Source of the DNA: a virus
Virus record (IMG/VR): IMGVR_UViG_3300031565_014856
Location: 1-58,914 of that record
DNA length: 58,914 bases
Direction: 5' to 3' (one strand)
The translations under genes were made by a program, and so were the position numbers. Each line of letters opens with the position of its first letter. Within the stretch, counting starts at the first letter, position 1. Below are positions 12,093 to 55,711 of the stretch, piece after piece. The notes beneath the pieces are model-generated. The model saw nothing but the letters and a program-made list of their open reading frames with translations, was not told where the DNA came from and made no database searches.

Positions 12093-12140
12093 GGCCAAAT
12101 ATAACAAAAAACCCCGAGATAAAAAATCCCGGGGTTGTTA
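12093..12140 (-). promoter_or_regulatory. Fused terminator and promoter
   Basis: On the minus strand CCCCGGGA, a T-run and TCTCGGGG form a hairpin followed by TTTTTT, a classic intrinsic terminator for the cold-shock gene. The same T-run and the following GTTATATTTG form the promoter of the gene at 12091. One element thus ends one transcript and starts the next. Confidence 0.75.
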
Positions 12141-12158
12141 ATAATCCGTTAAAAAGTT

Positions 12159-14395: not shown

Positions 14396-14475
14396 ATTTT
14401 ATATTGGTAAATATATACCAAGTTTCGCTTCTGCGAAAATATTTTTTGTTAATTTTTTGTTAAGATTCAATTTAT
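14396..14475 (-). promoter_or_regulatory. Class II promoter with phased TTAACA repeats
   Basis: Minus strand: TTAACAAAAAATTAACA gives two TTAACA copies with 11-bp spacing. A short TTTCGCAGAAGCGAAA inverted repeat and a TATATTTACC box follow, with the candidate Y RNAs just downstream. Similar phased repeats precede the regulator gene at 48107. Confidence 0.55.
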
Positions 14476-17770: not shown

Positions 17771-17772
17771 TG

Positions 17773-18350: not shown

Positions 18351-18353
18351 CAA

Positions 18354-18626: not shown

Positions 18627-18649
18627 GGCTTTTATTTTATTTATCTTCG

Positions 18650-20184: not shown

Positions 20185-20192
20185 AAGGCTTT

Positions 20193-20393: not shown

Positions 20394-20406
20394 AATTAAA
20401 GTTTAG

Positions 20407-20479: not shown

Positions 20480-20480
20480 A

Positions 20481-21379: not shown

Positions 21380-21564
21380 GTTATTGTGTTTTTTATTATA
21401 CATATTATCATGGATATTATCACGAATACTATCATTCCTATGGATCCAAAAATGGAAATATTAAATAAACTTATGTGTAATTTTATTCCTATTAAAACCC
21501 ATATCAAATATAGAATTATGGAAACTATCCAAATTTTTTCTCCTGTAGAAAACACTTTTTTCAT
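21376..21564 (-). CDS. Two-span small membrane protein
   Basis: 62 aa, with hydrophobic segments at about 10-28 and 35-57. Overlaps the clpP start and the gene upstream by 4 bases. Confidence 0.65.
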   Translation of the reverse strand: MKKVFSTGEKIWIVSIILYLIWVLIGIKLHISLFNISIFGSIGMIVFVIISMIICIIKNTIT

Positions 21565-21995: not shown

Positions 21996-22010
21996 ACTTT
22001 TTATTTTGGG

Positions 22011-22044
22011 TAAATATAACAAAAATAATTGTAACGAGGAAATG
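22011..22044 (-). promoter_or_regulatory. Class I phage promoter
   Basis: Minus strand TCGTTACAATTATTTTTG followed by TTATATTTACC. The ATG at 21995 is about 15 bases downstream. It is placed just after tRNA-Glu. Confidence 0.55.
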
Positions 22045-22045
22045 G

Positions 22046-22117
22046 TAGCCCGTAGGGGAATCGAACCCCTGTTACCAGGATGAAAACCTGGCGTCCTAAC
22101 CCCTAGACGAACGGGCC
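22046..22117 (-). tRNA. tRNA-Glu (TTC)
   Basis: Acceptor GGCCCGT/ACGGGCT, D-stem GTCT/GGAC with a normal 8-nt loop, anticodon stem CCAGG/CCTGG with loop TTTTCAT, and T-loop TTCGATT. A second Glu tRNA with a 20-nt D-loop lies at 24712. Confidence 0.93.
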
Positions 22118-22119
22118 AT

Positions 22120-22200
22120 TTATTTGGAAAGTATTCTTGCCCACCCTCTTGCTATTAGGTAGCTTAATCCCCAAATTCCTATAATTATTAGTGTAGCCAT
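22120..22200 (-). CDS. 26-residue membrane microprotein
   Basis: 26 codons from ATG at 22200 to TAA, one strongly hydrophobic segment (ATLIIIGIWGLSYLIA) and a basic end. Spacing to its neighbours is tight (4 bases), which supports it weakly. Confidence 0.4.
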   Translation of the reverse strand: MATLIIIGIWGLSYLIARGWARILSK

Positions 22201-22204
22201 ATTA

Positions 22205-22402
22205 TTAATTATAAAAAACAACAGAATCTCTTGTTATGGTATGAAGACCATCCTCTTCAAATTCAATTCTATCAAAATAAATAATTTCTTCTTTCACCTC
22301 AACTTTAGGTTTAAAATCAAGGTGAATTGGCGGAGATTTTTGTATGGTGTAATCCGTAATAAGCAAAAATCCACCTAATAAAAATATAATTATTGTGCTC
22401 AT
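22205..22402 (-). CDS. Membrane-anchored small protein
   Basis: 65 aa from the ATG at 22402; the upstream part of the frame is tRNA-Leu(TAA). N-terminal membrane segment (residues 3-18), then an acidic soluble part. Function unknown. Confidence 0.6.
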   Translation of the reverse strand: MSTIIIFLLGGFLLITDYTIQKSPPIHLDFKPKVEVKEEIIYFDRIEFEEDGLHTITRDSVVFYN

Positions 22403-22404
22403 AG

Positions 22405-22490
22405 TACCCGGAGTGGGAATCGAACCCACACGGCCATTACTGGCCACTGGATTTTAAGTCCAGCGCGTCTACCAATTCCGCCACCCGGGC
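22405..22490 (-). tRNA. tRNA-Leu (TAA)
   Basis: Class II tRNA: anticodon stem CTGGA/TCCAG, loop CTTAAAA, long variable arm with GGCC/GGCC pairing, and T-loop TTCGATT. Acceptor ends contain two G-U pairs. Confidence 0.92.
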
Positions 22491-22571
22491 AGGTAGTTAA
22501 ATTTAACAATACAGTCTAACCCACGATCGTTGCTGCAACTGCACCCCATTCAGCTTTTGGGTGTTAAATAG
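22491..22571 (-). other. Structured spacer, no gene seen
   Basis: Between two tRNAs. Contains CACCC/GGGGTG and GTTGCAGCAAC inverted repeats on the minus strand. No ORF or complete tRNA. Confidence 0.3.
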
Positions 22572-22789
22572 AGACGGGGGACGGATTCGAACCGCCGACC
22601 TCCAGGTTGTTGTACTTCCTCCTTACCTTCAAATCTCTTTTTTACAATTACCAGGGAGCGACCCCAGATCAAGCAAAATGACCTAAATGATGATTTATCA
22701 GAAGTATCGATACCCATACTTAAAGCTTAATGCATGCTCTTTAAGATGTCATCGATCCTGACGCTCTGTCCGGGCTGAGCTACCCCGCC
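22572..22789 (-). tRNA. Interrupted tRNA with about 143-nt insert in the anticodon loop
   Basis: The 5' part (22757-22789) has acceptor GGCGGGG, a D-arm GCTC/GAGC and anticodon strand TCAGG. The 3' part (22573-22606) has CCTGG, variable AGGTC, T-arm GGCGG TTCGAAT CCGTC and acceptor CCCCGTC. Acceptor pairs 7 of 7 (one G-U) and anticodon stem pairs 5 of 5 (one G-U). About 150 bases lie between, of which 7 should be the loop. The insert has none of the conserved group I intron core sequences I could recognise and is shorter than known tRNA group I introns. Amino acid unresolved. Could be a pseudogene. Confidence 0.65.
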
Positions 22790-22794
22790 ATTCG

Positions 22795-22964
22795 TATTTC
22801 AGAACTCCAGAACGGAGCACCGTGGAACCTTTCCTCACTTTCATAAATATCGGTCTACCACACATTTGGGTAACAACTCCCAATGCGAACTGTTTCGTCT
22901 GCCCAGGTTGCCTTAACGGCTGGCTTACTTATCAGTTCAGGCTATTAACAACACAACAAAGAAC
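22795..22964 (-). ncRNA. Structured spacer RNA C
   Basis: Between tRNA-Tyr and the interrupted tRNA. On the minus strand it starts with a boxA-like GTTCTTTGTTGTG, contains GTTAATAGCC, and ends near a stem AACGGAGCACCGTG. It resembles the 5' parts of RNAs A and B only loosely. No ORF with recognisable product. Confidence 0.35.
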
Positions 22965-22972
22965 GTTAACTG

Positions 22973-23055
22973 TGGGGAGAGGAGGATTCGAACCTCCGAA
23001 GGCGAAAGCCAATGGATTTACAGTCCATCCCATTTAACCACTCTGGAATCTCCCC
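22973..23055 (-). tRNA. tRNA-Tyr (GTA)
   Basis: Class II tRNA: acceptor GGGGAGA/TCTCCCC, anticodon stem ATGGA/TCCAT with loop CTGTAAA, long variable arm GGCTTTCGCC, and T-loop TTCGAAT. Confidence 0.93.
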
Positions 23056-23058
23056 GTT

Positions 23059-23421
23059 TGATGGGTTAAAGTTGCAACTAAAACCCATCTAAATGACATC
23101 AACCGCCGTTTTATCTATCATATCTATAATTATTATCCATATTTGATTTTCTAATACCGGATTTTTATAAGTGATATTAAGGTAATCAAGGACCAACAAT
23201 TCTCCGTAGAGAATGAATCTAATTAACATTTGGCTAACAGCTTTCTAGAACACTGCCGGATAAATCGTTTACCTTGCTCTCATCTGTACTGGTATGCACA
23301 GCAAAAGCGCATGACGTGGGAGTTGCACCCACTTCTCCTTGTGTATAGACAAGGTGACTTACCTAATAGTCTAAATCAAAAGGTTAACGAAACCTAGTTG
23401 AATCAAGTATTTTCAAAGAAC
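23059..23421 (-). ncRNA. Structured RNA B with boxA-like head, tRNA mimic and hairpin end
   Basis: Reading the minus strand: GTTCTTTGAAAATACTTGA at the 5' end, a tRNA-like segment (23308-23381), CTGTTAGCC at 23232-23240, ACGGCGGTTGAT at 23098-23109, and a hairpin with GATGGGTT/AACCCATC at 23060-23089. The same four landmarks in the same order occur in RNA A. GTTAGCC can pair with GGTTGAT here and with GGTTAAT in RNA A, so the helix is kept despite a base change. The segment may be one precursor that also yields the tRNA-Tyr downstream. Confidence 0.55.
23308..23381 (-). tRNA. Degenerate tRNA or tRNA mimic inside RNA B
   Basis: D-arm GACT ATTAGGTA AGTC is perfect. The anticodon arm CCTTG/CAAGG encloses an 8-nt loop (or a 6-bp stem with a 6-nt loop). 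The T-arm is GTGGG TGCAACT CCCAC, with a non-standard T-loop. The acceptor (TTTTGAT/GTCATGC) pairs at only about 4-5 positions. It is unlikely to be charged normally and is more like the tRNA-like module of bacterial Y RNAs, or a decayed tRNA. Confidence 0.5.
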
Positions 23422-23432
23422 TCTTTCTTTAG

Positions 23433-23517
23433 TGGGAAGGGAATGGACTCGAACCATCGAAGACCTGAAGGCCACCCTATTTACCATAGGGCCCGTTTGC
23501 CGCTCTGGAACCTTCCC
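23433..23517 (-). tRNA. tRNA-Tyr-like gene with G33 and an extra base
   Basis: Class II fold with acceptor GGGAAGG/CCTTCCC and anticodon stem CCCTA/TAGGG. The loop TGGTAAA puts GTA at 34-36 but has G at the nearly invariant U33 position. One extra C lies between the T-stem and the acceptor. Compared with tRNA-Tyr at 22973 it looks decayed or altered for a purpose other than translation. Confidence 0.6.
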
Positions 23518-23522
23518 GTAAC

Positions 23523-23790
23523 GTTAGGAAGATTCGCGTAATCTTCCTAACTAAGTGAATTAACCGCCGTATTTCCATGGGCTAACAGATTTTCGAAACC
23601 TGCTGGGTCGGCTCTTAATAGTTTCCTGATGTGGCATATGATCCTCCACCTTGCGGTTTCCTCATGAGCATAAGCACCTCCACTACTCGTCTGCCAAACG
23701 GCCGTCTGCTGTTTTGGAACAACGTAATTGGTCACCACAGACGAACATCTTTAATTCTCTCCCAGTTAATTCAAGTATTTTTCAAAGAAC
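23523..23790 (-). ncRNA. Structured RNA A with boxA-like head and hairpin end
   Basis: Minus strand: GTTCTTTGAAAAATACTTGA at 23771-23790; a T-arm-like CAGGT TTCGAAA ATCTG; CTGTTAGCC at 23580-23588; ACGGCGGTTAAT at 23559-23570; and a perfect 12-bp hairpin (GTTAGGAAGATT/AATCTTCCTAAC) at 23523-23551. Same layout as RNA B, with a shorter middle. No ORF of interest. May be a regulatory or tRNA-processing leader, or a phage small RNA. Confidence 0.55.
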
Positions 23791-24044
23791 TAATACAACC
23801 AGTTAATCACTGATTCATATCTAAAATCACTATCTTCATTTAACTGCTCCAATTCTTCTTCTGTCATCTCCCTTCCGTCATATTCTGCGTAGGATATAAA
23901 GGCATCGCAAAAGTCTGGAGCATCTCTGTGATCAATATCTTCTATTTCAATGCTTCCGATTTTGGAGTAATCAAAAATAAATTTATTTCTAGCATTCTCT
24001 TTTTGATTGTGCTCCCAATTTTCTATAGTTTTATCTTTTGACAT
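23790..24044 (-). CDS. Hypothetical acidic protein
   Basis: 84 aa from the ATG at 24044, which overlaps the previous stop as TAATG. Sequence rich in Asp and Glu (SIEIEDIDHRDAPDF, REMTEEELEQLNEDSD). Not recognised. Its 3' end abuts the boxA-like head of RNA A. Confidence 0.65.
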   Translation of the reverse strand: MSKDKTIENWEHNQKENARNKFIFDYSKIGSIEIEDIDHRDAPDFCDAFISYAEYDGREMTEEELEQLNEDSDFRYESVINWLY

Positions 24045-24190
24045 TAGTTCAACCATATATCTCGTTCAACACACCAAGTATTCATTTTCATTCCAATGTT
24101 AAACCAAACGTCAACGTCGGTTTGAGTGTTGGCATTTTGAATCCTCTTGCAAATAAAATCGGCTATTTTTTGAAGAATCTTTGTTTTCAT
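24044..24190 (-). CDS. 48-residue hypothetical protein
   Basis: 48 codons from ATG at 24190 to TAA. The C-terminal half VDVWFNIGMKMNTWCVERD looks like a folded segment. It is the first gene behind the promoter at 24213-24255. Confidence 0.6.
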   Translation of the reverse strand: MKTKILQKIADFICKRIQNANTQTDVDVWFNIGMKMNTWCVERDIWLN

Positions 24191-24212
24191 TATGTGTTGT
24201 TTTGTTAATCTG

Positions 24213-24255
24213 AGGCTAATATAACCATAATTACCGAAACGAGAAAATTTTTAAT
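24213..24255 (-). promoter_or_regulatory. Class I phage promoter inside the RNA array
   Basis: Minus strand AAAAATTTTCTCGTTTCGG, then TAATTATGGTTATATTAGCC. It probably drives the two small genes and the RNAs down to 22400. Confidence 0.55.
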
Positions 24256-24278
24256 TAAAAAAGTAGAGAAAATTTAAG

Positions 24279-24362
24279 AGTGTATTGAGGATTTGAACCC
24301 CGTGTCCCGAAGGACGCCTGTTTTTCAGACAAGTGTGTATACCAATTTCACGATGAAACACT
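24279..24362 (-). tRNA. Class II tRNA-like gene with GAA anticodon
   Basis: Leu-type D-region (AATTGGTATACAC) and a long variable arm GTCC TTCG GGAC, but the anticodon loop CTGAAAA reads GAA, the Phe anticodon. Acceptor AGTGTTT/ATACACT pairs 6 of 7, the T-stem 4 of 5, and the discriminator is C. Either a decayed Leu tRNA or one that would insert a class II amino acid at Phe codons. Confidence 0.5.
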
Positions 24363-24383
24363 ACTTAGTTACTACTACTATTG

Positions 24384-24468
24384 TGGAACCAAGAGGACTC
24401 GAACCTCCGACCTCTGGTATTTCACACCAGCGCTCTACGCGTATTGCTACCATCTGAGCTACGGTTCC
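24384..24468 (-). tRNA. tRNA-Phe (GAA) with 20-nt D-loop
   Basis: Acceptor GGAACCG/TGGTTCC, anticodon stem CTGGT/ACCAG with loop GTGAAAT, and T-arm GGAGG TTCGAGT CCTCT, all sound. The D-stem GCTC/GAGC closes a 20-nt loop; normal is 8. The extra 12 bases read CAATACGCGTAG after GGTAG. A normal tRNA-Phe lies next to it at 24546. Confidence 0.8.
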
Positions 24469-24545
24469 ATAAAGACGAGGAAAACCCTAAAGTTTATTAC
24501 GATGAGAAGTCTGCCACCAAAAAGGCAGCCACAACAACCCGTCAG

Positions 24546-24620
24546 TGTGGGGAGAGGCAGAATCGAACTGCCGACACATGGATTTTCAGTCCATTGCTCT
24601 ACCAACTGAGCTACCTCCCC
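24546..24620 (-). tRNA. tRNA-Phe (GAA)
   Basis: Canonical cloverleaf: acceptor GGGGAGG/TCTCCCC, D-stem GCTC/GAGC, anticodon stem ATGGA/TCCAT with loop CTGAAAA, and T-loop TTCGATT. Confidence 0.93.
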
Positions 24621-24624
24621 ATAG

Positions 24625-24704
24625 TGGGATGAGACGGAGTCGAACCATCACAGCCAAGGCGGGGGTTTTACAGACCCTTGGGCTCACCCATGCCCAGCCA
24701 TCCC
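24625..24704 (-). tRNA. tRNA-Tyr (GTA), second copy
   Basis: Acceptor GGGATGG/TCATCCC, D-stem GGGC/GCCC, anticodon loop CTGTAAA on a stem with one A-C mismatch, variable arm of class II length, and T-loop TTCGACT. Confidence 0.82.
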
Positions 24705-24711
24705 ATAATAG

Positions 24712-24795
24712 TCACCGGTACGGGGGTCGAACCCGTGTTTGTAGCTTGAAAGGCTACTGTCCTAAGCGCAATGCAACCGACTAGACGAACCGGCG
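24712..24795 (-). tRNA. tRNA-Glu (TTC) with 20-nt D-loop
   Basis: Acceptor CGCCGGT/ACCGGTG, D-stem GTCT/GGAC, anticodon stem GTAGC/GCTAC with loop CTTTCAA, and T-arm with TTCGACC. The D-loop has 12 extra bases (GCATTGCGCTTA) compared with the normal Glu tRNA at 22046. The insert resembles that in the Phe tRNA at 24384. Confidence 0.82.
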
Positions 24796-24837
24796 ATTAA
24801 TATGTTAGCCATTTTTACTGTTTTTGTACAGTTTTAG

Positions 24838-25281
24838 CTAACATGTTAGTCTATTTTTATGATTTCTTCCTCTAAATGTCGGAGTTTGAGAATGGCAATT
24901 TGGACAAAGAATTTGTAAATTTTTTAATCTATTGTCTTTATTATTTCCATTTATATGATCAAGCTCCAAAACTAAAACTTCTTCAAACCATTCTTCCCCT
25001 TGACCACATTTTTCACATTTAGGTTTTTTGTATCCTTCAGCAATCAATCTATTTTTTAAATTATAAGATCTCATGTTTTTCTTTCCTGAAAAAACATCTT
25101 CTAAAAGAGTAACAAGTTTTTGCGTTCCTTTGCCCCCTTGATTTGGTTTCCAACATTCAAGTTTTAAAGCTCTTCTTTTAAAAGTTTGATATGGAATTCC
25201 TACTCTTTTTGCTGCTAATGACATTGTTGCCTCTTCATTACAGGCTTTAATAATATCATCCATTAATTCTTTTTCACTCAT
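24838..25281 (-). CDS. HNH homing-type endonuclease
   Basis: 147 aa from ATG at 25281. The N-terminal 60 residues look like a helix-turn-helix (AAKRVGIPYQTFKRRALKL). The C-terminal HNH core is complete: paired Cys (CEKCG near 93), LVLELDHINGNNKDNRLKNL and CPNCHS. Such enzymes nick or cleave DNA and are typically mobile. Placement between tRNA-Leu and tRNA-Glu fits a homing element and may relate to the rearranged tRNAs around it. Confidence 0.88.
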   Translation of the reverse strand: MSEKELMDDIIKACNEEATMSLAAKRVGIPYQTFKRRALKLECWKPNQGGKGTQKLVTLLEDVFSGKKNMRSYNLKNRLIAEGYKKPKCEKCGQGEEWFEEVLVLELDHINGNNKDNRLKNLQILCPNCHSQTPTFRGRNHKNRLTC

Positions 25282-25327
25282 GGTAAACACTTTATTTTAT
25301 ATATCTAAGTGTCTACCAAATTTTAAG

Positions 25328-25412
25328 TGACCTCGGAGAGACTCGAACTCTCACTCCCTTAACGGGAACTAGGGCCTAAACCTAGCGCGTCTACCAATTC
25401 CGCCACGAGGCC
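25328..25412 (-). tRNA. tRNA-Leu (TAG)
   Basis: Class II tRNA: acceptor GGCCTCG/CGAGGTC, anticodon stem CTAGG/CCTAG with loop TTTAGGC, and T-loop TTCGAGT. The upstream hydrolase gene ends inside it. Confidence 0.92.
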
Positions 25413-26860
25413 AGATGTCTTGGTACAGAAGGAGGAATGATATCTATGAATGTTTCAAACACAGATATTATCACTCTTTTGTACCTTGTTAAAGATGGAT
25501 TTCCATTGTCTGTTACTGATAATATTATGTGTATCTCTGTATTTTCTGCATCTAACGGAATGTTCACATATGATTGTTGAGATGTTGGATTGTCTATCGT
25601 CACATTTCCATTATATGTTCCTGGCTCTTTATAATACCACCATTCGTAACTTAAAACATCTCCATCAGGATCGGTTGCAGTTGATGATAGGTTTATTACA
25701 TCTCCTTTAAACGCATCAATGTATAAAATTTCATTATCCACTATCGGAGGGTGATTAACATTTTCATATGAAGGTGTCAAGCTCCAATCCATCATAGCCG
25801 CAAATTCATTTTGAAAAGGTTCCCACCACCTAAATATTGTTGCATATTTGCTTGTGTATCCGTTCCATGTATCTTCAGCCGGTCCATACATATAATATGG
25901 ATCAAAATCACTTTCTGCATATTCCCTTTGTCTTGGGGGTCCTAAATTAAGATAAGACCGTATACCTGTGACTGGAACTTTTGTTGAACGTCCACCCCAA
26001 CTCCCGTGCCAAGGTTGTTCAGGATCATTAAGTCCATTGTTTACTAAGTATAACAAAACTGGAGTATCTCCTTCTTTTAAATATCTTCTCGGAGGATACA
26101 TTGCACCTAAAACTCCATGACTTCTTACATTGTTATTTGCCCATTCATCACTAGCAAAGGAAGGATCACCTTTCGCGCATTCTCCACAAAAAGGATAAAA
26201 ATAAAGTTGTTCATCTGCTATGGGATCCATTGCACAAAACATATTGTCCCATCTTAAATACCAAAGATCTGGATAATGAGAGGCATCCATCAACCAAGCA
26301 CCACTATCATCTTGACCAGCATTATCTAATACTCTTAATTTACTTACAGCATTATTAACTGCGTCAACCCCTTCAGTTTTTCTTATGTGTTCCAACGCCT
26401 GAGCTAAAACGGCTCCATCGCCCCATATACTTATCCAAATCGGTCTATCATCATCTCTATTGATTGCATCTATTATTATTTGAGCTCCATCTGAAATAGG
26501 TTCTTCATTTAATGCATAAGCAGTACCATAGTCTGCAGGGCCAAGTGCTGTTACCGATCTTAATGATTCAGGAGAAGGATACCCATTTGCATGAACAGAT
26601 AGGTTAGGTAAAACGATTTCATAAGCATCTATCACATCGTAAATAGGTTCCACAAACCTGTAACGCATATTGTGAGAGCATGTAGCTACCAATCCTTCGA
26701 TGTCAAACATATATGAATATGTCATTAGTCTGACTAAGCTCATCGCATCATCTGTTTCTTTATTGGGATCAATGTTTGGGTCTGCCAAAACAATTAATCG
26801 GTGTTGGCCAGAAACAAATACTGCTATGAATAAAAATAAAATTATGAGGAACGATCTCAT
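25391..26860 (-). CDS. Exported DUF1593 nucleoside-hydrolase-like protein
   Basis: 489 aa from ATG at 26860; upstream frame lies in tRNA-Pro. A signal peptide covers residues 1-18. The domain HRLIVLADPNIDPNKETDDAMSLVRL matches the inosine-uridine nucleoside hydrolase-like fold of DUF1593 proteins, with the Asp-rich metal site DPN..DDA. A motif SIWGDGAVLAQAL and a WHGSWGGRSTKV block follow. The last 120 residues form an immunoglobulin-like domain (ATDPDGDVLSYEWWYYKEPG). Secreted members occur in polysaccharide-degrading Bacteroidota. The gene lies alone among tRNAs and its stop is inside tRNA-Leu(TAG), so it looks like a late insertion. Confidence 0.82.
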   Translation of the reverse strand: MRSFLIILFLFIAVFVSGQHRLIVLADPNIDPNKETDDAMSLVRLMTYSYMFDIEGLVATCSHNMRYRFVEPIYDVIDAYEIVLPNLSVHANGYPSPESLRSVTALGPADYGTAYALNEEPISDGAQIIIDAINRDDDRPIWISIWGDGAVLAQALEHIRKTEGVDAVNNAVSKLRVLDNAGQDDSGAWLMDASHYPDLWYLRWDNMFCAMDPIADEQLYFYPFCGECAKGDPSFASDEWANNNVRSHGVLGAMYPPRRYLKEGDTPVLLYLVNNGLNDPEQPWHGSWGGRSTKVPVTGIRSYLNLGPPRQREYAESDFDPYYMYGPAEDTWNGYTSKYATIFRWWEPFQNEFAAMMDWSLTPSYENVNHPPIVDNEILYIDAFKGDVINLSSTATDPDGDVLSYEWWYYKEPGTYNGNVTIDNPTSQQSYVNIPLDAENTEIHIILSVTDNGNPSLTRYKRVIISVFETFIDIIPPSVPRHLASWRNW

Positions 26861-26879
26861 TTTTATTTTATTTATTTGG

Positions 26880-26952
26880 TCGAGGTGGCCGGGCTCGAAC
26901 CGACGGCCCCGTGCTCCCAAAGCACGTAATCTACCAACTGATCTACACCTCG
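26880..26952 (-). tRNA. tRNA-Pro (TGG)
   Basis: Acceptor CGAGGTG/CACCTCG, anticodon stem CGTGC/GCACG with loop TTTGGGA, and T-loop TTCGAGC. D-stem GATC/GATT has a G-U closing pair. Confidence 0.9.
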
Positions 26953-27013
26953 AAAATATGGCAGCCAACCCGCCTAATGCAGGCACTTACCATAAAAAAT
27001 TAGCTAATTTTTG

Positions 27014-27086
27014 TCGGGGTGGCCGGGCTCGAACCGACGACCTCCTGGTCCCAAACCAGGCACGCTACCAACTGCGCTACACCCCG
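27014..27086 (-). tRNA. tRNA-Pro (TGG), second copy
   Basis: Acceptor CGGGGTG/CACCCCG, anticodon stem CCTGG/CCAGG with loop TTTGGGA, and T-arm almost identical to the previous Pro tRNA. Confidence 0.93.
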
Positions 27087-27119
27087 TTTTGTAGTCTTTC
27101 CCACTGTCACTCATCTCGA

Positions 27120-27198
27120 CCAACGGTCACGGGAATCGAACCCGTACCTATACCCCTAATGGGTAGTGACTTGCCATTTGTCCATTCCGGCAGTGTTG
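27120..27198 (-). tRNA. Degenerate tRNA, anticodon unclear
   Basis: Good T-arm ACGGG TTCGATT CCCGT. The anticodon arm TACC(C) encloses CATTAGG, lacking U33; read literally the anticodon would be TTA. Acceptor pairs only as CAAC/GTTG with mismatches below. Probably a decayed tRNA or one with moved parts. Confidence 0.45.
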
Positions 27199-27204
27199 AT
27201 TCAG

Positions 27205-27285
27205 TTACCCTGAGAGGAATCGAACCTCTGTCTCCGGGGCCAAAACCCGACGTGTTGTGCTTGCGCTCCTTTATACTACAGGGCA
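27205..27285 (-). tRNA. tRNA-Gln (TTG) with enlarged D-loop
   Basis: Acceptor TGCCCTG/CAGGGTA, anticodon stem TCGGG/CCCGG with loop TTTTGGC, and T-arm with TTCGATT. The D-loop is about 17 nt (normal Gln copy at 27555 has 8) with extra GCGCAAGCAC after AAAGGA. Confidence 0.8.
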
Positions 27286-27293
27286 ATGTAGTT

Positions 27294-27369
27294 GAGTCCA
27301 CACCCAGGATCGAACTGGGTTCCCCGCCATACCAAGGCGGCATTCTATGCCTTCTAAACTATGCGGACT
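27294..27369 (-). tRNA. tRNA-Thr (GGT)
   Basis: Acceptor AGTCCGC/GTGGACT, anticodon stem CCGCC/GGCGG with loop TTGGTAT, and T-loop TTCGATC. The D-stem is weak (GTTT/GAAT). Confidence 0.85.
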
Positions 27370-27424
27370 GGTAAGAGGCTTTGCACCTCGGATGAGAGTC
27401 ACTTAATCACTCTTAAGTTTTTGG

Positions 27425-27550
27425 TGGGGAAGGTTGGAGTTGAACCAACTGACTTTAGTATTTCAAACTAACGTTTAACCGATGAAACTCTATGCGTTAC
27501 TATGAAGAAATTCAAGAAAATTGCGAGAGCATTTTTAAAACTTCTTCCCC
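27425..27550 (-). tRNA. tRNA-Phe (GAA) interrupted after the acceptor strand
   Basis: 5' acceptor GGGGAAG at 27544-27550 pairs perfectly with CTTCCCC at 27426-27432. The D-arm GTTT CATCGGTT AAAC, anticodon arm TTAGT TTGAAAT ACTAA and T-arm GTTGG TTCAACT CCAAC are all sound. Between acceptor and D-arm lie 55 bases where 2 are normal. The 5' strand begins five bases after the previous tRNA's end, as expected for a real tRNA start. Confidence 0.7.
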
Positions 27551-27554
27551 ATTG

Positions 27555-27627
27555 TTGACCCTCCAGGGCTCGAACCCGGACTCTTGTGGACCAAAACCAC
27601 ACGTGTTACCAATTACACTAAGGGTCA
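27555..27627 (-). tRNA. tRNA-Gln (TTG)
   Basis: Canonical: acceptor TGACCCT/AGGGTCA, D-arm GTGT AATTGGTA ACAC, anticodon stem TGTGG/CCACA with loop TTTTGGT, and T-loop TTCGAGC. Confidence 0.93.
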
Positions 27628-27664
27628 ATTTGCACGTCTTTCCGTGCTGTCAATCATTTCGATC

Positions 27665-27781
27665 CCAAATGGATGTTTACCGCTTACACTAATTGAACTT
27701 TAACGACAATGCTAATGATGCATTGTGCGGTTCAATGATGGATTCGAACCATCCTCCCATTATTTTGAGATGTCCATTCAG
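27665..27781 (-). tRNA. Permuted tRNA candidate 1 (3' half before 5' half)
   Basis: On the minus strand a 3' half comes first: stem strand TAATG, variable GGAG, T-arm GATGG TTCGAAT CCATC and acceptor ATTGAAC (27730-27736). A 31-nt spacer with the hairpin ACAATGC/GCATTGT follows. Then a 5' half: acceptor GTTCAAT (27692-27698), TA, D-arm GTGT/ACAT with GG in the loop, and CATTT. The acceptor strands pair 7 of 7 without wobble. CATT can pair with AATG across the join. The anticodon is unresolved; CTCAAAA precedes the 3' stem strand. No other tRNA partner for either half is nearby. Confidence 0.6.
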
Positions 27782-27854
27782 AGCCGGAGACAGGAATCGA
27801 ACCCGCGACATCTTCATTACAAGTGAAGCGCTCTACCTACTGAGCTACTCCGGC
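27782..27854 (-). tRNA. tRNA-Thr (TGT)
   Basis: Canonical: acceptor GCCGGAG/CTCCGGC, anticodon stem CTTCA/TGAAG with loop CTTGTAA, and T-loop TTCGATT. Confidence 0.93.
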
Positions 27855-27889
27855 ATTACAAACTGAGAAAATTGACTAGAGATATTTTA

Positions 27890-27972
27890 TCGTGCTACCA
27901 ATTACACTAATCCCGCATAAACATGGAGCGGGACCCAGGATTCGAACCTGGACTAATCGTTCCCAAAACGAA
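27890..27972 (-). tRNA. Permuted tRNA candidate 2 (Pro-type anticodon TGG)
   Basis: The 3' half comes first on the minus strand: anticodon arm TTCGT TTTGGGA ACGAT, T-arm CCAGG TTCGAAT CCTGG and acceptor GTCCCGC (27928-27934). An 11-nt spacer follows, then the 5' half: acceptor GCGGGAT (27910-27916), TA and D-arm GTGT AATTGGTA GCAC. Acceptor strands pair 7 of 7 with one G-U. The join would fall near position 26/27. An intact Pro(TGG) tRNA occurs twice nearby, so this copy is not needed for that codon. Confidence 0.6.
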
Positions 27973-28002
27973 GTAACTCTTGGTCGTTACTACAGTCTAT
28001 AG

Positions 28003-28073
28003 AGGTCCCTCCCAGATTCGAACTGGGGTCTCTGGTTTTGCAGACCAGCGCCTAACCGCTCGGCTAAGGGACC
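28003..28073 (-). tRNA. tRNA-Cys (GCA)
   Basis: Acceptor GGTCCCT/AGGGACC, D-arm with GCGGTTA, anticodon stem CTGGT/ACCAG with loop CTGCAAA, and T-loop TTCGAAT. First tRNA of the array in the direction of transcription. Confidence 0.93.
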
Positions 28074-31600: not shown

Positions 31601-31832
31601 TGTTAAATATGTTAGGATTGTATAATTTATTTCTAAGATCTAAGTTAAAAGAGATCAATCTGATTTCTTCGTCTGCTGATTTTATATTGCCGTCTTCTAT
31701 TAAAGTTTTAATTTTATGAAGCCACGTATCTTCAAACACTTCATATTCATTTAAGAATATTTTCGCTCCATCTATTCCTCCTTTTTCCCAATGGAGAATT
31801 AATCCCTTTACTGTTGCTTTTAGCTTGTCCAT
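31578..31832 (-). CDS. Small hypothetical protein
   Basis: 84 aa, helical, opening MDKLKATVKGLILHWEKGG. No motif. Overlaps genes on both sides. Confidence 0.65.
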   Translation of the reverse strand: MDKLKATVKGLILHWEKGGIDGAKIFLNEYEVFEDTWLHKIKTLIEDGNIKSADEEIRLISFNLDLRNKLYNPNIFNNGHRKDS

Positions 31833-32230
31833 TTTTCAAATCTCAACAATTCTTTTTTAAATTCGTCTGGAAAAATTTCTGTAGCCTCTCTCACAGCCTT
31901 CTGATCAAAACCCATTTTAGAAGCATAATCATTCAATGTACTTTCTTTAAAGTTTGATTTCTTTTCCTTAGATTCCTTGGCTTTTTTAACTCCCTTAGTG
32001 AACATCCAATATGGAGTCTTGGTGAATTGTTTTCTTAAGAAATGCTGCCAAAAATCAACAACACCAACTTCGTTTATCTTTTGGTGTTGTAAAACTTGAG
32101 CTTGTAATGGGAACTGAATGGACATTCTACGATTTATCATGAAGAAATGTTTTCTCTTCTCGCCGGGAGTTACATTCTTGTAACTTTGTGGGTCCTCAAA
32201 CATTATCTTGGTGAGTTCAAATAGCTCCAT
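31820..32230 (-). CDS. Conserved-looking phage hypothetical protein
   Basis: 136 aa. Contains KRKHFFMINRRMSIQFPLQAQ and VVDFWQHFLRKQFTKTPYWM, dense aromatic motifs with the look of a well-conserved phage protein acting with other replication proteins. The clamp loader large subunit is 4 kb away, so a small clamp-loader role is conceivable but unproven. Confidence 0.65.
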   Translation of the reverse strand: MELFELTKIMFEDPQSYKNVTPGEKRKHFFMINRRMSIQFPLQAQVLQHQKINEVGVVDFWQHFLRKQFTKTPYWMFTKGVKKAKESKEKKSNFKESTLNDYASKMGFDQKAVREATEIFPDEFKKELLRFEKWTS

Positions 32231-32327
32231 TTATCTCTATTTATATAAAGGGTCTTTTCCTGAGGGCTTGGTTACCCAATTATATGTATGCTCAAGAAAA
32301 AGTTTTGGTACATGTGTTAAATTTTTG
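32231..32327 (-). promoter_or_regulatory. Possible class II promoter
   Basis: Minus strand: TTAACAAAAATTTAACA (11-bp spaced repeats, at about 32315-32335) upstream of a TATAATTGGG box, then a leader to the ATG at 32230. The repeats overlap the end of the gene upstream. Confidence 0.45.
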
Positions 32328-32660
32328 TTAAGATCCTATGGATCTTGTTTTGGTTTTTAATTTTATTCTATTGTTTGTTTGTTGACATTCTGGTACTAAT
32401 CTGTTAATGGACCAATATATGTTAGCTGAAGGATCATACATATTCAATGCTGATTTGATTGTTCTTAAAACCCATGTGGCTTCTTTTATTGTGTCAAAAA
32501 CAACGGCATAAGGACCCTCATCATCCTTTTTTATATCCTCAAGCACAATGCTTATAAGTGCAATTTCGCCATCACGGATTTTTCCAATATAATAAAATGC
32601 GGCATCTTTTTTCAGACCCAATTCCAATCCTGTTATTGTACATTTAATCGCCTTCCCCAC
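32328..32660 (-). CDS. Hypothetical protein
   Basis: 110 aa with strands GLELGLKKDAAFYYIG and YAVVFDTIKEATWVL. Basic C-terminus. No family recognised. Overlaps the upstream gene by 17 bases. Confidence 0.65.
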   Translation of the reverse strand: MGKAIKCTITGLELGLKKDAAFYYIGKIRDGEIALISIVLEDIKKDDEGPYAVVFDTIKEATWVLRTIKSALNMYDPSANIYWSINRLVPECQQTNNRIKLKTKTRSIGS

Positions 32661-34843: not shown

Positions 34844-35188
34844 TTAAAATGGTAAATCATCAGGGTCCTCATTTATGATAGCTTCCTCAAGTCTTTTTCT
34901 TTTGGATTCTGCGTTTTCAAGTTGAATTTTCATGTTGCTCTTGAAAAATTTCATTACATCATGTTCATTCCTAAATAAAAATTTTTCACTTATTTCAGGC
35001 CAATTATTATTGTTGTAACTATCCGTATCTAATAATAATTTATAAACTATTTCTTGAACTCCATTATCAGTACAAAGTATTTCAAATCCTTTAATCATTC
35101 CACACCTTACGTTTACATCTCCGGTTTTATTACCGTGTTCCAAGAAGAAAACATTCTCCCGTAAATTATATTCGGTTTCTATTTTCAT
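34844..35188 (-). CDS. Hypothetical protein, paralogue of the previous gene
   Basis: 114 aa, same fold pattern as the 34527 gene, with a longer charged tail (ENAESKRKRLEEA). Two bases separate the pair. Function unknown. Confidence 0.65.
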   Translation of the reverse strand: MKIETEYNLRENVFFLEHGNKTGDVNVRCGMIKGFEILCTDNGVQEIVYKLLLDTDSYNNNNWPEISEKFLFRNEHDVMKFFKSNMKIQLENAESKRKRLEEAIINEDPDDLPF

Positions 35189-35268
35189 CGAGGATCGTAA
35201 TCGTTATCATAATATGGAAGTATGGGATAAATTTAATCAATAAAAAATGAAAAAAGAAAGAATTTTTG

Positions 35269-35613
35269 TTAAGAGTTCGTTAAAATATTATTCATCTCCG
35301 TTTTATAAAGATGTTTTCGAACTTTGTTCTCAGGAATTTCCCGCTTTTTTCGAAGTGAATATCTCTTATTTAATTCATCAAAACGGGGCGTTAATGTCCA
35401 GTATCCTCGTTCAAAGTCCTTGCGATCTTTAAACAAACTCTTAATGTTATTTGTGGAGCGTTGTTGATATATGAACATCCCGATGAAAATAAATCCAAGA
35501 AAAAGTGCTTCCTTGGCCGCTACAATAAAATAAGCAGTACCAAGGAGCAGGGGTGCTACGTGAGCAAATACTTGAAAACACCACAATATGTAAAATGTTA
35601 CCCGACCTCCCAT
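35269..35613 (-). CDS. Membrane protein with basic tail
   Basis: 114 aa from the ATG at 35613 that overlaps the upstream stop. Two hydrophobic segments (about residues 5-26 and 31-50), then a basic tail. No family recognised. Confidence 0.65.
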   Translation of the reverse strand: MGGRVTFYILWCFQVFAHVAPLLLGTAYFIVAAKEALFLGFIFIGMFIYQQRSTNNIKSLFKDRKDFERGYWTLTPRFDELNKRYSLRKKREIPENKVRKHLYKTEMNNILTNS

Positions 35614-44224: not shown

Positions 44225-44629
44225 CTATTTGTAAATGGGTTTAACTTCAATTTCTACAGAATCAACCGAGGAAGTTAGCGGAAAAGATTTCCAGTTTACG
44301 CTACTCCCAAGATGAACTTTCAATCTATAATCATACTCCAAATATTCAGCGATAGGAAAATCTTTGACGACTCCATAAATTTTCCTGCCCTTTTCGAGCG
44401 TTCCTCCGTTGTCAAGAAACTCGTTAATGGAAACTTTTGTCGTCCTAGATTGAACCCTATTGGAGTGTTTGATTGTAGCTTTGGTGAAACACCTAGCACA
44501 GCAATATCCTAATAAATAAATCGTTGACCATTCTCCACTACTTCTTTTTACTTGTGTACCGTCATGTTCTTTTTGACAATCCGGGTTTTTACATACCCGT
44601 GGTTCTAAAAATGCTCTTTTTTCTTTCAT
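44225..44629 (-). CDS. Zinc-finger hypothetical protein
   Basis: 134 aa. Cys residues at CKNPDC near 14 and YCCARC near 43 form a likely zinc site. Then a beta-rich C-terminus. Not recognised. Its ATG lies 16 bases past the tRNA-like gene at 44644. Confidence 0.65.
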   Translation of the reverse strand: MKEKRAFLEPRVCKNPDCQKEHDGTQVKRSSGEWSTIYLLGYCCARCFTKATIKHSNRVQSRTTKVSINEFLDNGGTLEKGRKIYGVVKDFPIAEYLEYDYRLKVHLGSSVNWKSFPLTSSVDSVEIEVKPIYK

Positions 44630-44643
44630 TGTGTGTTTGTTTG

Positions 44644-44725
44644 CGGCTTCGGAGAGATTCGAACTCTCACCCCTTTCGGTTTCCTGGCTCCATCATCAGG
44701 GCTCTCATCCTGCGTGGCTCAGCCG
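44644..44725 (-). tRNA. tRNA-Ser-like gene (GGA region), degenerate
   Basis: Class II layout with a sound T-arm GAGAG TTCGAAT CTCTC and variable arm ACC GAAA GGG. The anticodon stem CCTG/CAGG encloses a 10-nt loop containing TGGAGC, so the likely anticodon is GGA. Acceptor GGCTGAG/CGAAGCC pairs at 5 of 7. It has its own promoter immediately upstream. Confidence 0.6.
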
Positions 44726-44741
44726 TGTTTCATTTTCTTAA

Positions 44742-44825
44742 GTAAATATAACCATTTCCTGCGACAGTAGAAAATTTTAAATGTTAAAAAATGTTAAAAA
44801 TTAAGAAAATGTTAAAAAAATCCCT
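44742..44825 (-). promoter_or_regulatory. Class II promoter of the isolated tRNA
   Basis: Minus strand: three TTAACA or near-copies spaced by about one helical turn (around 44780-44820), then GGTTATATTTACTTAAG. The tRNA-like gene starts about 25 bases on. Confidence 0.5.
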
Positions 44826-44905: not shown

Positions 44906-46309
44906 TTATTTACCGGTTGCCGCTGGAGTTGTAAGTTGCTTAGACATTGCCCCCATTATAAGGGTTTCAAGTGGTCCATTTACAGTTCCTTTTCCGCCTG
45001 CTCCACCTTGAGTATTAAAATAGGTGGTTGGCCACGTTGTCTTTGCTAATTCAGCCATCATTGCTACCTGAGCATCAAGTCTCATTTTAAGCTCTTGTTC
45101 AGGAGTAATACCAGCGGTAACTTTCTTAGTAATCTCATATGCATCAGCATCTGCCTTTACCTTAACTGTTTGTGAGTTAAGTTTCTGAGTCTCAAGTTGG
45201 ATTTGAGCTAATTCCTTATTAGTAGCCTCTTCTTTAAGTTTGGTCTCAATAGCGATAAGCTTTTTAACTTGTTCTTTTTCTTGAGCTACACGTTCAGCCG
45301 CCTTATCTCTTTCACCTTCGGCAATTATCCTTTGTTGAGTGGCCTTGGCAGTTTCGATTTTTTGTTGTTCTAACTGTCTGAGAGCTGATTCATCCCTTTG
45401 TTTTTCAAGTCTTTGTTTAAAGGTAGGATCAAGGATCAGTTGGTCAACAATAACCTGGGATACAACGATGTTGTTCTCTGACAACTCATGTTGTATTCTA
45501 ACGGGTATACCATTTACTTCAACTTTTTCTACTTGATAAGTTGTGCGGATTTCCCTTATCTGCCTTTGCGTTCCTTTTTCTTCGATGTTAGCATAAATGG
45601 TATCTTGAAAAGTATTCTTATTAACCTTAAAAGTACCACCTTTTAATTGCTCTTCGAACGTTTGTCTAAATGATTGAGCCTCCCCGGAGATGTAGTCCTG
45701 AGCTGCAAACATGTAGGCGATCTGGATCAGCTGTTCTTTTACAGTGGGGATAATAGTGTTGTTTACAAGGTTAGACATTGAACGGAATTCAACAGCCAAA
45801 CTGATAAATGTAGCTTTATCTTCTGGTAATTGGAACCTTGTAGACACGAGTCCTTGAGCAGTTACTTGATCAATGAAACGTAAATCAACCGGCTTCATGA
45901 TTCCTTCGAGTTCTTTCTCATCATATTCAACACCTTCTCCGACGACTTTAACGTCAATGTACTTTTGCCATGGATCAAGTTTTGCAAATCCTCTCCATTT
46001 GATACCTTGAACCATTACGGCATCAAGCTTTCCACCCGGGTGAACGAGTAAGTAATTATAACCCCTATCAGCAAAGAAGAAAAGGTAAGGGATCATAAAC
46101 ACAAATAGACCCACAACAACAAGTGGGATGGACAGCTTCTTTTTCAAATTTACCATCCAGTCTGGGGATTTACTTTCAACAAGTTGTCTAACTTGTTCTC
46201 CCCTGTGGTTTACACCTTCCTGATATTTGTCTTCAGTAACTGTGAAGTACTTAATGATCAAAATGGCCAAACCGCTGATCAGAATTAAAATTCCTAATAA
46301 TTGAAACAT
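44906..46309 (-). CDS. SPFH/band-7 (prohibitin-like) protein
   Basis: 467 aa. Two hydrophobic segments at about residues 3-22 and 60-80, a band-7 domain from about 90 to 290, and a long Ala/Glu/Lys/Gln coiled coil (about 300-410), ending in a Gly-rich tail. SPFH proteins form large membrane rings, like HflK/C, that shield or sort membrane proteins and control FtsH. In a phage this could organise the envelope or guard lysis proteins. The promoter at 46342-46395 carries TTAACAA repeats, linking it to the OmpR-type regulator. Confidence 0.88.
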   Translation of the reverse strand: MFQLLGILILISGLAILIIKYFTVTEDKYQEGVNHRGEQVRQLVESKSPDWMVNLKKKLSIPLVVVGLFVFMIPYLFFFADRGYNYLLVHPGGKLDAVMVQGIKWRGFAKLDPWQKYIDVKVVGEGVEYDEKELEGIMKPVDLRFIDQVTAQGLVSTRFQLPEDKATFISLAVEFRSMSNLVNNTIIPTVKEQLIQIAYMFAAQDYISGEAQSFRQTFEEQLKGGTFKVNKNTFQDTIYANIEEKGTQRQIREIRTTYQVEKVEVNGIPVRIQHELSENNIVVSQVIVDQLILDPTFKQRLEKQRDESALRQLEQQKIETAKATQQRIIAEGERDKAAERVAQEKEQVKKLIAIETKLKEEATNKELAQIQLETQKLNSQTVKVKADADAYEITKKVTAGITPEQELKMRLDAQVAMMAELAKTTWPTTYFNTQGGAGGKGTVNGPLETLIMGAMSKQLTTPAATGK

Positions 46310-46341: not shown

Positions 46342-46395
46342 ATACAAATATAATTAAATTCTTTAAAAACTTGTTAAGAAAATTGTTAAGAATTT
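46342..46395 (-). promoter_or_regulatory. Class II promoter with three phased repeats
   Basis: Minus strand TTAACAA-TTC-TTAACAA-TTTTC-TTAACAA (11-12 bp steps), an A/T spacer and AATTATATTTG. SPFH ATG at 46309. Confidence 0.6.
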
Positions 46396-47420: not shown

Positions 47421-48107
47421 TTATTCGAGAACCAATCCTTGTCCAGAAATGTTCTTAATTTTCATGTTTATATTATTGTTACTGAAAATCTTTCGTATCC
47501 CACTAACGTAAACATCCATCGAACGGCTTGTGTAATAATCATTTTTACGCCACAATCTCTCAAGAATGAGTTCCTTTTTAACAGGTTTACCAAGATTATA
47601 TGCAAGCATCTCAATTATACCACCACTTTTTTCAGAAAACACACCGCCATTTTCCTTTGTGATTTCTACGCCATTATGATACAATGTTCTGGTGTTAGGG
47701 TCATAAACACAAGACCCAAATTCAATTTTATCTTTTCTTCGCGATGTAAGTCTCTGTAAGGCATCAAAGTTTTTCTCATAATTCATAACACTCTTGATAA
47801 TTAAACTAAACAAGAGTTCATAATCTTTTCCATCAAATTCAAAGTAAATATCAGCATTATTTGATTTAACAACGTTTTTGCCAATCACCACAACTGGTAT
47901 GTATGGGTGCTTCTTCTTTATAAAATCGATAGATTTTTGTGAATATGTCGTGGAATTATCGATAACAAAGGCGCTCACATCTCCAACTGCTATGCTATCA
48001 AATAGCATCTTCTCTGCATTTGCTGGGATGATCTCAGCGATGTTCTTTGAGATCTTTATAAACCCAGAAATTATATTGGAATCTTGTGCGTTAAGAACTA
48101 TTTTCAT
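47421..48107 (-). CDS. OmpR/PhoB-type winged-helix regulator
   Basis: 228 aa from ATG at 48107 (a longer frame would start at TTG inside the promoter). Residues 1-115 resemble a degenerate receiver domain (alternating strands, VSAFVIDNSTTYS), without a clear phosphoacceptor Asp. Residues 135-228 are an OmpR-type winged helix: KELILERLWRKNDYYTSRSMDVYVSGIRKIF is the recognition region, followed by the wing ISGQGLVLE. Such proteins bind two or more direct repeats 11 bp apart. Four TTAAC copies with that spacing lie in its own promoter and others before several operons. Confidence 0.85.
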   Translation of the reverse strand: MKIVLNAQDSNIISGFIKISKNIAEIIPANAEKMLFDSIAVGDVSAFVIDNSTTYSQKSIDFIKKKHPYIPVVVIGKNVVKSNNADIYFEFDGKDYELLFSLIIKSVMNYEKNFDALQRLTSRRKDKIEFGSCVYDPNTRTLYHNGVEITKENGGVFSEKSGGIIEMLAYNLGKPVKKELILERLWRKNDYYTSRSMDVYVSGIRKIFSNNNINMKIKNISGQGLVLE

Positions 48108-48131
48108 AGATGAGAGTTTATTCGTTGCCAA

Positions 48132-48190
48132 ATATAATCAAAAAAGTTAAGAAATTGTTAAAAACTTTGTTAAGATTTTGTTAATTTTTT
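48132..48190 (-). promoter_or_regulatory. Class II promoter of the regulator gene
   Basis: Minus strand: four TTAAC(A) copies with 11-12 bp spacing between about 48139 and 48186, then GATTATATTTGG. Autoregulation is inferred. The most distal repeat overlaps the end of the gene upstream. Confidence 0.65.
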
Positions 48191-53450: not shown

Positions 53451-53470
53451 TATTTAACATTTTTTAACAT

Positions 53471-55245: not shown

Positions 55246-55465
55246 TTTAACAAAATCTTAACATGAGGCTGAAAACCAACCTCTTGGGGAGCATATAACT
55301 AAAGTCTTTACGCCTCGGGAAAGAAAGTCTTGCACCTGCGACCCCTGCCCGCCCGCGTATATGGAATAAATAATAAAAGGTTTTAAATCTTAACCGAACT
55401 TTAACATCCAAGAATGTCCAAACCCCACGAAATTTATTAAATTAGCTTAAAATAACTATGTACTG
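55246..55465. other. Strand-switch region, GC-rich island, no gene seen
   Basis: 220 bases between divergent gene blocks. Plus strand holds two TTAACA-type pairs with 11-bp spacing (around 55251-55266 and 55387-55404), an inverted repeat GAGGCTG/CAACCTC, and a GC-rich stretch (CTGCGACCCCTGCCCGCCCG near 55338-55357) unlike the rest. Possible regulatory hub, small RNA or replication start. No ORF above 30 codons of interest. Confidence 0.5.
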
Positions 55466-55711
55466 ATGGGAAAATCTTATCGTAAAACCCCAATCATTGG
55501 CATTGCCGGTGACTCAGAAAAGAAAGACAAGCAAATTGCTAACGGAAAATTCCGAAAAAGATCCAAACAAAAGCTTCACGAAGAAGATCTCGATGGATTA
55601 CCATACGATCTCGATGAAGTCTACAATAAATGGTCCATGGCCAAAGACGGAAAGACTTATCTCGATCCCGACTCCGATTATTATAAAGAAGGAAAGTGGC
55701 GTAGAAAATAA
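55466..55711 (+). CDS. Small hypothetical protein, first plus-strand gene
   Basis: 81 aa, basic and acidic clusters (KKDKQIANGKFRKRSKQKLH, then DLDGLPYDLDEVYNKW). Leader has class II-type repeats and a TAAATTAG-like box. Not recognised. Confidence 0.65.
   Translation: MGKSYRKTPIIGIAGDSEKKDKQIANGKFRKRSKQKLHEEDLDGLPYDLDEVYNKWSMAKDGKTYLDPDSDYYKEGKWRRK

What the first reader, a model, noticed from the sequence alone, without database searches (positions are those of the whole stretch)
47421..48190. OmpR-type regulator and its phased TTAACA boxes: a MotA-like middle-gene switch
The gene encodes a winged helix of the type that binds 11-bp direct repeats. Its own promoter has four TTAAC copies with 11-12 bp steps. 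Similar arrays lie before the SPFH gene (46342-46395), the candidate Y-RNA/TROVE locus (14396-14475), the isolated tRNA (44742-44825), 32315-32335 and the strand switch (55251-55266, 55387-55404). The boxes replace the T-rich/TCGGG element of class I promoters while the -7 box stays, as expected for a factor that recruits host polymerase.
Basis: partly seen in the sequence, partly recalled or inferred. Interest (0 to 1): 0.88.

Follow-up and report, generated by a model that had tools for sequence, protein, structure and literature searches.

The report
Phage OmpR-type regulator with phased boxes
A large phage, probably of Bacteroidota bacteria, carries its own signal-less version of a bacterial OmpR/PhoB regulator and a matching set of evenly spaced TTAAC boxes in front of its own gene and about eight other loci, which looks like a gene-expression switch built from a borrowed bacterial part.

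Summary
The gene is 47421-48107(-), 228 aa: a response-regulator-like protein with an OmpR/PhoB winged helix and a degenerate receiver. TTAAC pairs 11 bp apart occur 9 times in the window (0.28 expected). The main result is a fixed register: the second TTAAC starts 37 bp upstream of a TAnnTTTG -7 box. The exact composite occurs 6 times in the window. It occurs in 7 of 11 contigs that encode the regulator, and in none of 14 regulator-lacking relatives or other large phages from about 2.7 Mb. All 12 full-length homologues examined have TTAAC boxes in their own promoter. Most likely the protein is a kinase-independent activator of itself and a small regulon. It is not a MotA: fold and box position differ, and timing is untested. 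The boxes lie upstream of the -33 region and do not simply replace the class I element. An IMG/VR-wide scan shows the same promoter layout in many unrelated phages. Some encode a stand-alone OmpR-type winged helix. At least two near-complete 157-159 kb genomes encode none that I could detect, so a host regulator (Pho-box-like) may read these boxes too. Phage-regulator binding is inferred, not shown.

The parts
47421..48107 (-). Orphan OmpR/PhoB-type regulator, 228 aa: degenerate receiver (about 1-120) and winged helix (about 127-228)
   Evidence: Trans_reg_C E 1.4e-9; AF2 model with receiver and winged-helix folds; 10-sequence alignment shows no conserved phospho-Asp or acidic pair
48146..48184 (-). 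Own-promoter array: four TTAAC, steps 11/12/11
   Evidence: second TTAAC is 37 bp upstream of the -7 box
48129..48136 (-). -7 box TATATTTG of the regulator promoter
   Evidence: sigma-ABfr consensus TAnnTTTG (PMC7366714)
46345..46400 (-). Composite promoter of the phrog_11908 (SPFH/stomatin-like) gene 44906-46309: three TTAAC and TATATTTG
44743..44797 (-). Composite promoter (10-bp step) before a tRNA-like RNA and gene 44225-44629
   Evidence: same arrangement in G001 (22474) and G015 (11592)
35228..35283 (-). Composite promoter before gene 34844-35188
14408..14463 (-). Composite promoter before the repeat-containing non-coding stretch upstream of the TROVE gene 12416-14092
   Evidence: TROVE E 9e-8; arrays also upstream of TROVE in G017
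12096..12152 (-). Composite promoter (offset 38) before gene 11798-12091; hairpin and T-run lie between array and -7 box
32277..32331 (-). Array with variant box (CATATAATTG, offset 36) before gene 31820-32230 (phrog_35599)
55247..55302 (+). Array with CATATAACT box at offset 35/36 at the strand switch
   Evidence: same arrangement in G001 at 14423(-)
55390..55445 (+). Array with degenerate -7 (TAAATTAG, offset 37) before gene 55466-55711
53454..53468 (+). Isolated TTAAC pair (10-bp step) without a -7 box; possibly chance

Best explanation
The gene encodes a phage-borne, phosphorylation-independent transcription factor of the OmpR/PhoB type. A dimer binds two head-to-tail TTAAC half-sites 11 bp apart, centred near -52. 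From there it helps RNA polymerase use promoters that have a host-type -7 box (TAnnTTTG) but no recognisable -33 element. It acts on its own gene (autoregulation, most likely positive) and on about eight other loci in the window: the SPFH-like gene, the TROVE/non-coding RNA locus, a tRNA-like RNA, small genes and the strand switch. Shown: fold, loss of the phospho-acceptor site, phased arrays, fixed 37-bp register, conservation of boxes in the regulator's own promoter, and co-occurrence with the regulator within this set of relatives. Inferred: that this protein binds the boxes, that it activates, and that no kinase is needed. Not known: timing during infection.
For: Fold: AF2 model (pLDDT 79.7). 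Receiver part Z about 15-16 to receivers, rmsd 2.0 over 110-116 residues; winged helix Z 14.8, rmsd 1.6 over 97 residues, to SaeR. Top Foldseek hits are full-length OmpR/PhoB regulators, and the list includes the phosphorylation-independent orphan HP1043. Register: -7 boxes at offset 37 for 28 of 74 arrays against 0-4 at other offsets within 5-51 bp; in a second count 23 of 78 downstream against at most 2 at any upstream control position. Co-occurrence: an 11-bp excess in 10/10 regulator-encoding and 0/7 lacking contigs. The composite is in 7/11 regulator-encoding contigs (32 sites, 4 duplicated between the overlapping G016 and G017) and in 0/14 lacking records, with no reversed-control hit in any regulator-encoding contig and one overall. 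Autoregulation: all 11 full-length homologue loci (10 sequences, one duplicated) carry a TTAAC pair upstream. A twelfth (G036) came from a blind motif scan and does too. The different, stand-alone winged helix of G023 also has a perfect array in its own promoter. Half-site flavour follows the regulator clade: base 6 is G in 9/10 first half-sites of G013/G015 against 2/22 elsewhere, although this may be one evolutionary event. Collection-wide: at least 126 distinct promoters at the right spacing against 11 at a spacing 5 bp shorter and 67 at one helical turn further.
Against: G024 (266 kb, 30 composites), G026 and G027 (157 and 159 kb, 12 each, circularly permuted and near complete) have no detectable OmpR-type winged helix, so another factor can read this layout. 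Of 30 contigs with the motif that were checked, only 4 gave a hit with the regulator profile, one of them full length; many are short fragments. Cyanophages use host PhoB at TTAAC-type Pho boxes (PMC10976474). Extra boxes reaching near the -7 box in the regulator's own promoter could mean negative autoregulation. No binding, expression or host data. The regulator-lacking relatives are mostly fragments.
Confidence: 0.66

Rival explanations
1. The arrays are read by a host OmpR/PhoB-type response regulator (a Bacteroidota equivalent of the TTAAC-core Pho box). Phages place this host operator upstream of their promoters; the phage protein is a mimic or competitor of that host regulator.
For: The cyanobacterial Pho box is CTTAACCT repeated with 3-bp linkers, an 11-bp period (PMC1906773). 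Cyanophage promoters are bound by host PhoB (PMC10976474). The same composite promoter, often with a -33 TTTG, occurs in many Bacteroidota-type phages, some near complete and without an OmpR-type gene. The closest named cellular family of the regulator is RprY of Bacteroidota.
Against: Regulator-lacking relatives of the window's phage, several with enriched TATATTTG, have no arrays. The regulator's own promoter carries boxes in every homologue. Half-site flavour differs between phage clades. No Bacteroidota host genome could be searched, so host use of the box is untested.
Confidence: 0.2
2. The protein binds the boxes but mainly represses: it is an autorepressor that silences its regulon by blocking promoters.
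For: Four boxes in its own promoter extend to about 14 bp upstream of the -7 box, over the region a polymerase must occupy.
Against: The box pair shared by the promoters lies upstream of the -33 region in a fixed register, with a preference for the same helical face collection-wide. The -33 element is missing in this phage group (2 of 28 sites) and some -7 boxes are weak, as at activator-dependent promoters.
Confidence: 0.1
3. The arrays are not regulator operators: they are A/T-rich upstream elements, replication iterons or dispersed repeats that happen to carry TTAAC.
For: TTAAC pairs in Flavobacterium phage MaF61 belong to a longer dispersed repeat and have no -7 box in register, so such a case exists.
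Against: Exact 37-bp register to the -7 box, 11-bp phasing, upstream position next to gene starts, variable sequence between the elements, and absence from close relatives.
Confidence: 0.04

Closest known systems
OmpR/PhoB response-regulator family (PF00486 winged helix plus receiver); nearest NCBIfam model RprY of Bacteroidota
   Same: Two-domain fold, winged helix, head-to-tail half-sites with an 11-bp period, box pair upstream of the promoter core, array in its own promoter
   Different: No conserved phospho-acceptor Asp or acidic pair, no Pfam receiver match, no partner kinase identified, phage-encoded; RprY score 41 bits against a cut-off of 370
Phosphorylation-independent orphan regulators (HP1043, CosR, RitR, ChxR type)
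   Same: OmpR-type fold with a receiver that does not need phosphorylation; structural matches to the first three
   Different: Cellular proteins; no sequence relationship tested beyond the fold
Phage T4 MotA/AsiA middle-promoter switch
   Same: Possible role: a phage DNA-binding protein that works with host polymerase and the host -10/-7 box
   Different: MotA has a double-wing fold, binds a single box at about -30 in place of the -35 element and needs AsiA (PMC2988021); here paired boxes at about -59/-48 and an OmpR winged helix
Cyanobacterial SphR Pho box and its use by cyanophages
   Same: TTAAC core, direct repeats at 11 bp, use of a PhoB-type operator on phage DNA (PMC1906773, PMC10976474)
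   Different: Cyanophages rely on host PhoB; here the phage carries its own regulator, and the downstream genes are not recognisable phosphate genes

Membership tests
OmpR/PhoB response-regulator family | Trans_reg_C winged helix | tested here: met
   E 1.4e-9, 38.4 bits over the 26.2 cut-off; homologues E 1e-9 to 2e-14
OmpR/PhoB response-regulator family | N-terminal receiver fold | tested here: met
   Model residues 1-117, Z 15-16, rmsd 2.0 to receivers; no Pfam Response_reg match
OmpR/PhoB response-regulator family | Phosphorylatable Asp and acidic pair in the receiver | tested here: not met
   Asp at position 50 only in the window and L006 proteins, replaced in the others; no acidic pair. 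It is therefore a pseudo-receiver relative, not a classical response regulator
OmpR/PhoB response-regulator family | Cognate histidine kinase in the genome | tested here: inconclusive
   No HATPase_c in 8 of 9 contigs; one in the 405-kb G017, nature not checked; most contigs are fragments
OmpR/PhoB response-regulator family | Head-to-tail operator with about 11-bp period, bound by the protein | tested here: inconclusive
   Operator present and co-occurring with the gene; binding cannot be tested here
T4 MotA | MotA DNA-binding domain (MotCF, PF09158) | tested here: not met
   No match over the cut-off in 9 regulator-encoding contigs; this gene is an OmpR winged helix
T4 MotA | Single box about 13 bp upstream of the -10 element, replacing the -35 | tested here: not met
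   Paired boxes; the nearer one ends 32 bp upstream of the -7 box
T4 MotA | AsiA co-activator and middle-phase expression | not tested
   AsiA not searched; timing needs infection RNA-seq
Pho regulon / Pho box | TTAAC-core direct repeats with 11-bp period | tested here: met
   one search compared with PMC1906773
Pho regulon / Pho box | Control by phosphate through PhoB/PhoR and phosphate genes downstream | tested here: inconclusive
   No phosphate gene recognised among the downstream genes searched; host regulation not testable here

The most novel reading that the evidence does not exclude
Phages of Bacteroidota share a previously undescribed promoter class: a TTAAC-N6-TTAAC operator in helical register about 37 bp upstream of the sigma-ABfr -7 box. 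It is read by OmpR/PhoB-type activators. Some phage lineages exploit the host's own response regulator, whereas others, at least twice and in different forms (pseudo-receiver protein; stand-alone winged helix), carry their own operator-matched copy. This would make it a general early-to-later gene switch in these phages.
Probability: 0.4. Interest if true: 0.76.

Novelty: new variant of a known kind. Interest (0 to 1): 0.62.

Why it matters
Little seems to be known of how large phages of Bacteroidota time their genes (own judgement; not searched systematically). This gives a concrete operator, a concrete protein and a fixed promoter geometry that can be tested with purified protein and a reporter. 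If true, it shows phages taking over a two-component output domain, stripping its signal input and using it as an internal switch. The composite motif also predicts regulons directly from metagenomic phage sequence.

Tried and rejected
MotA homology: rejected on fold, box position and PF09158 search.

Simple over-representation of TTAACA: not significant enough; the phasing is.

MaF61 arrays as a counter-example (arrays without a regulator): rejected, they lie in a long dispersed repeat without a -7 box in register.

Lak phages: no array excess and no regulator.

Relatives in NCBI phages: none with the window protein; homologue queries gave only weak matches to unannotated faecal contigs.

Relatives in bacterial genomes: two scans, only a distant Clostridiales response regulator, so the cellular origin could not be placed and no Bacteroidota genome was reached for a host Pho-box test.

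Looking for a hidden winged helix in G024/G026/G027: hmmsearch and hhalign negative, with a positive control at 97%; the first hhalign run timed out.

Literature for a phage-encoded OmpR-family regulator or a Bacteroidota Pho box: nothing directly relevant found with the terms tried.

Regex search for a wider CATATAAYT leader family: only the array-linked cases stood out.

Full report
What the thing is. The window is a 58,914-base virus record. The gene at 47421-48107(-) codes for 228 aa. Pfam recognises only the OmpR/PhoB C-terminal winged helix (E 1.4e-9); NCBIfam's nearest model is RprY of Bacteroidota, far below its cut-off. An AlphaFold2 model from ten homologues (pLDDT 79.7) has a receiver-like domain and an OmpR winged helix. 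VIA-align gives Z about 15-16 for the receiver part and 14.8 (rmsd 1.6 over 97 residues) for the winged helix against SaeR. Foldseek's best matches are full-length OmpR/PhoB proteins; the list includes the phosphorylation-independent orphan HP1043. The receiver has lost its chemistry: the homologues conserve neither the phospho-acceptor Asp nor the acidic pair, and Pfam's receiver model finds nothing in nine regulator-encoding contigs. The phosphorylation-independence of the protein is an inference from this.

The boxes. TTAAC pairs at exactly 11 bp occur nine times in the window, against 0.28 expected and at most 2 in 200 resamples. The four copies in the gene's own promoter have steps 11, 12 and 11.

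Fixed register. Across eight non-redundant regulator-encoding contigs, -7 boxes of the Bacteroidota primary-sigma type (TAnnTTTG; PMC7366714) pile up 37 bp downstream of the start of the second TTAAC: 28 of 74 arrays against 0-4 at other offsets within 5-51 bp. If the -7 box spans about -11 to -4 (assumption), the half-sites lie near -59 and -48. The exact composite TTAAC-N5/6-TTAAC-N31-33-TAnnTTTR occurs six times in the window and never in 20 shuffles. Eight further arrays without a TAnnTTT box carry ATAWAA at exactly offset 35, followed by a conserved leader (strand switch and 32.3 kb in the window). In the 405-kb G017, several arrays stand in one fixed register with a GAATATATAA box that looks like that phage's late promoter. 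The register to more than one kind of core box suggests that the bound factor contacts a part of polymerase other than the sigma region 4 site used by MotA; this is inference.

Link to the gene. Full-length homologues, about 40-60% identical to the window protein, were found in ten other viral contigs. Every one has TTAAC boxes upstream of its start codon. Contigs related through the SPFH-like gene or the RNA ligase, but without the regulator, have no 11-bp excess (0 of 7, against 10 of 10 with it). The composite occurs in 7 of 11 regulator-encoding contigs and in none of 11 regulator-lacking contigs plus three named phages. Half-site flavour differs by clade (G013/G015 mostly TTAACG, others TTAACA), in step with a variable residue of the recognition helix; with few independent events this is only suggestive.

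A wider pattern, and a caution. A spacing 5 bp shorter gave 18 stretches (11 distinct) and one 10 bp longer gave 80 (67 distinct, 15 of which also contain an in-register box). The layout is therefore common, and helical phase matters. One scan hit, G036, turned out to encode a full homologue (E 3e-80) with boxes in its own promoter. Another phage group (G022, G025, G044, G023) encodes a different, stand-alone winged helix (Trans_reg_C E 1e-19 to 1e-21 for the two types tested). In G023 its own promoter carries a perfect array; in G022/G025 it carries one TTAAC and a degenerate second. In these groups a -33 TTTG is kept 24-25 bp upstream of the -7 box, whereas the window's group lacks it. However, G024, G026 and G027 have 30, 12 and 12 composites and no OmpR-type winged helix that hmmsearch or hhalign could find; G026 and G027 are collinear, circularly permuted and so near complete. 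Something else reads the boxes there: a host response regulator or an unrecognised phage factor. Cyanobacterial Pho boxes have the same core and period (PMC1906773), and cyanophages are known to use host PhoB (PMC10976474). I could not reach any Bacteroidota host genome to test this.

Host. The -7 consensus and relatives of gene 31820-32230 in Flavobacterium, Chryseobacterium and Prevotella phages point to a Bacteroidota host. This is inference.

Verdict on the interpretation. An OmpR-type phage regulator with matched phased operators is well supported by sequence evidence; activation is the more likely sign of action. A MotA relationship is not supported, 'replaces the class I element' is only partly right, and middle timing is untested.

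Noticed in passing
window 44640-44742 (-): A tRNA-like RNA (T-arm-like GAGAGTTCGAATCTCTC, closing stem) that ARAGORN and Rfam do not call. Similar sequences follow the same kind of array in G001 (22474) and G015 (11592); single-sequence folds are not clearly more stable than shuffles (z -0.45 to -1.27).
   Followed up: partly
window 55247-55330 (+) and 32240-32331 (-): Arrays followed by a conserved block CATATAAYT...CTC..GGAAA, seen in five phages and linked to arrays; possibly a second promoter or leader type.
   Followed up: partly
window 31820-32230 (-): Gene of family phrog_35599, found in all regulator-encoding contigs over 30 kb that were checked, in none of the regulator-lacking ones checked, and in Flavobacterium, Chryseobacterium and Prevotella phages.
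   Followed up: partly
G017 (L073-L092): TGAATATATAA occurs 37 times (3.9 expected from anagrams), often just before ATG: a likely late promoter of that 405-kb phage.
   Followed up: no
window 14092-14415 (-): Repeated TTGTAGTAAG...TACTTCGT units between the array and the TROVE gene, a candidate Y-RNA-like transcript.
   Followed up: no
window 16019-28073 (-): Dense tRNA cluster: 18 genes by ARAGORN, including one with a CTA anticodon called tRNA-Pyl.
   Followed up: no
L097-L105 (Flavobacterium phage MaF61): Dispersed repeat TTAACATCNTTTTAACA...GAAGCTTCNTAC in at least eight places, all on the + strand; function unknown.
   Followed up: partly
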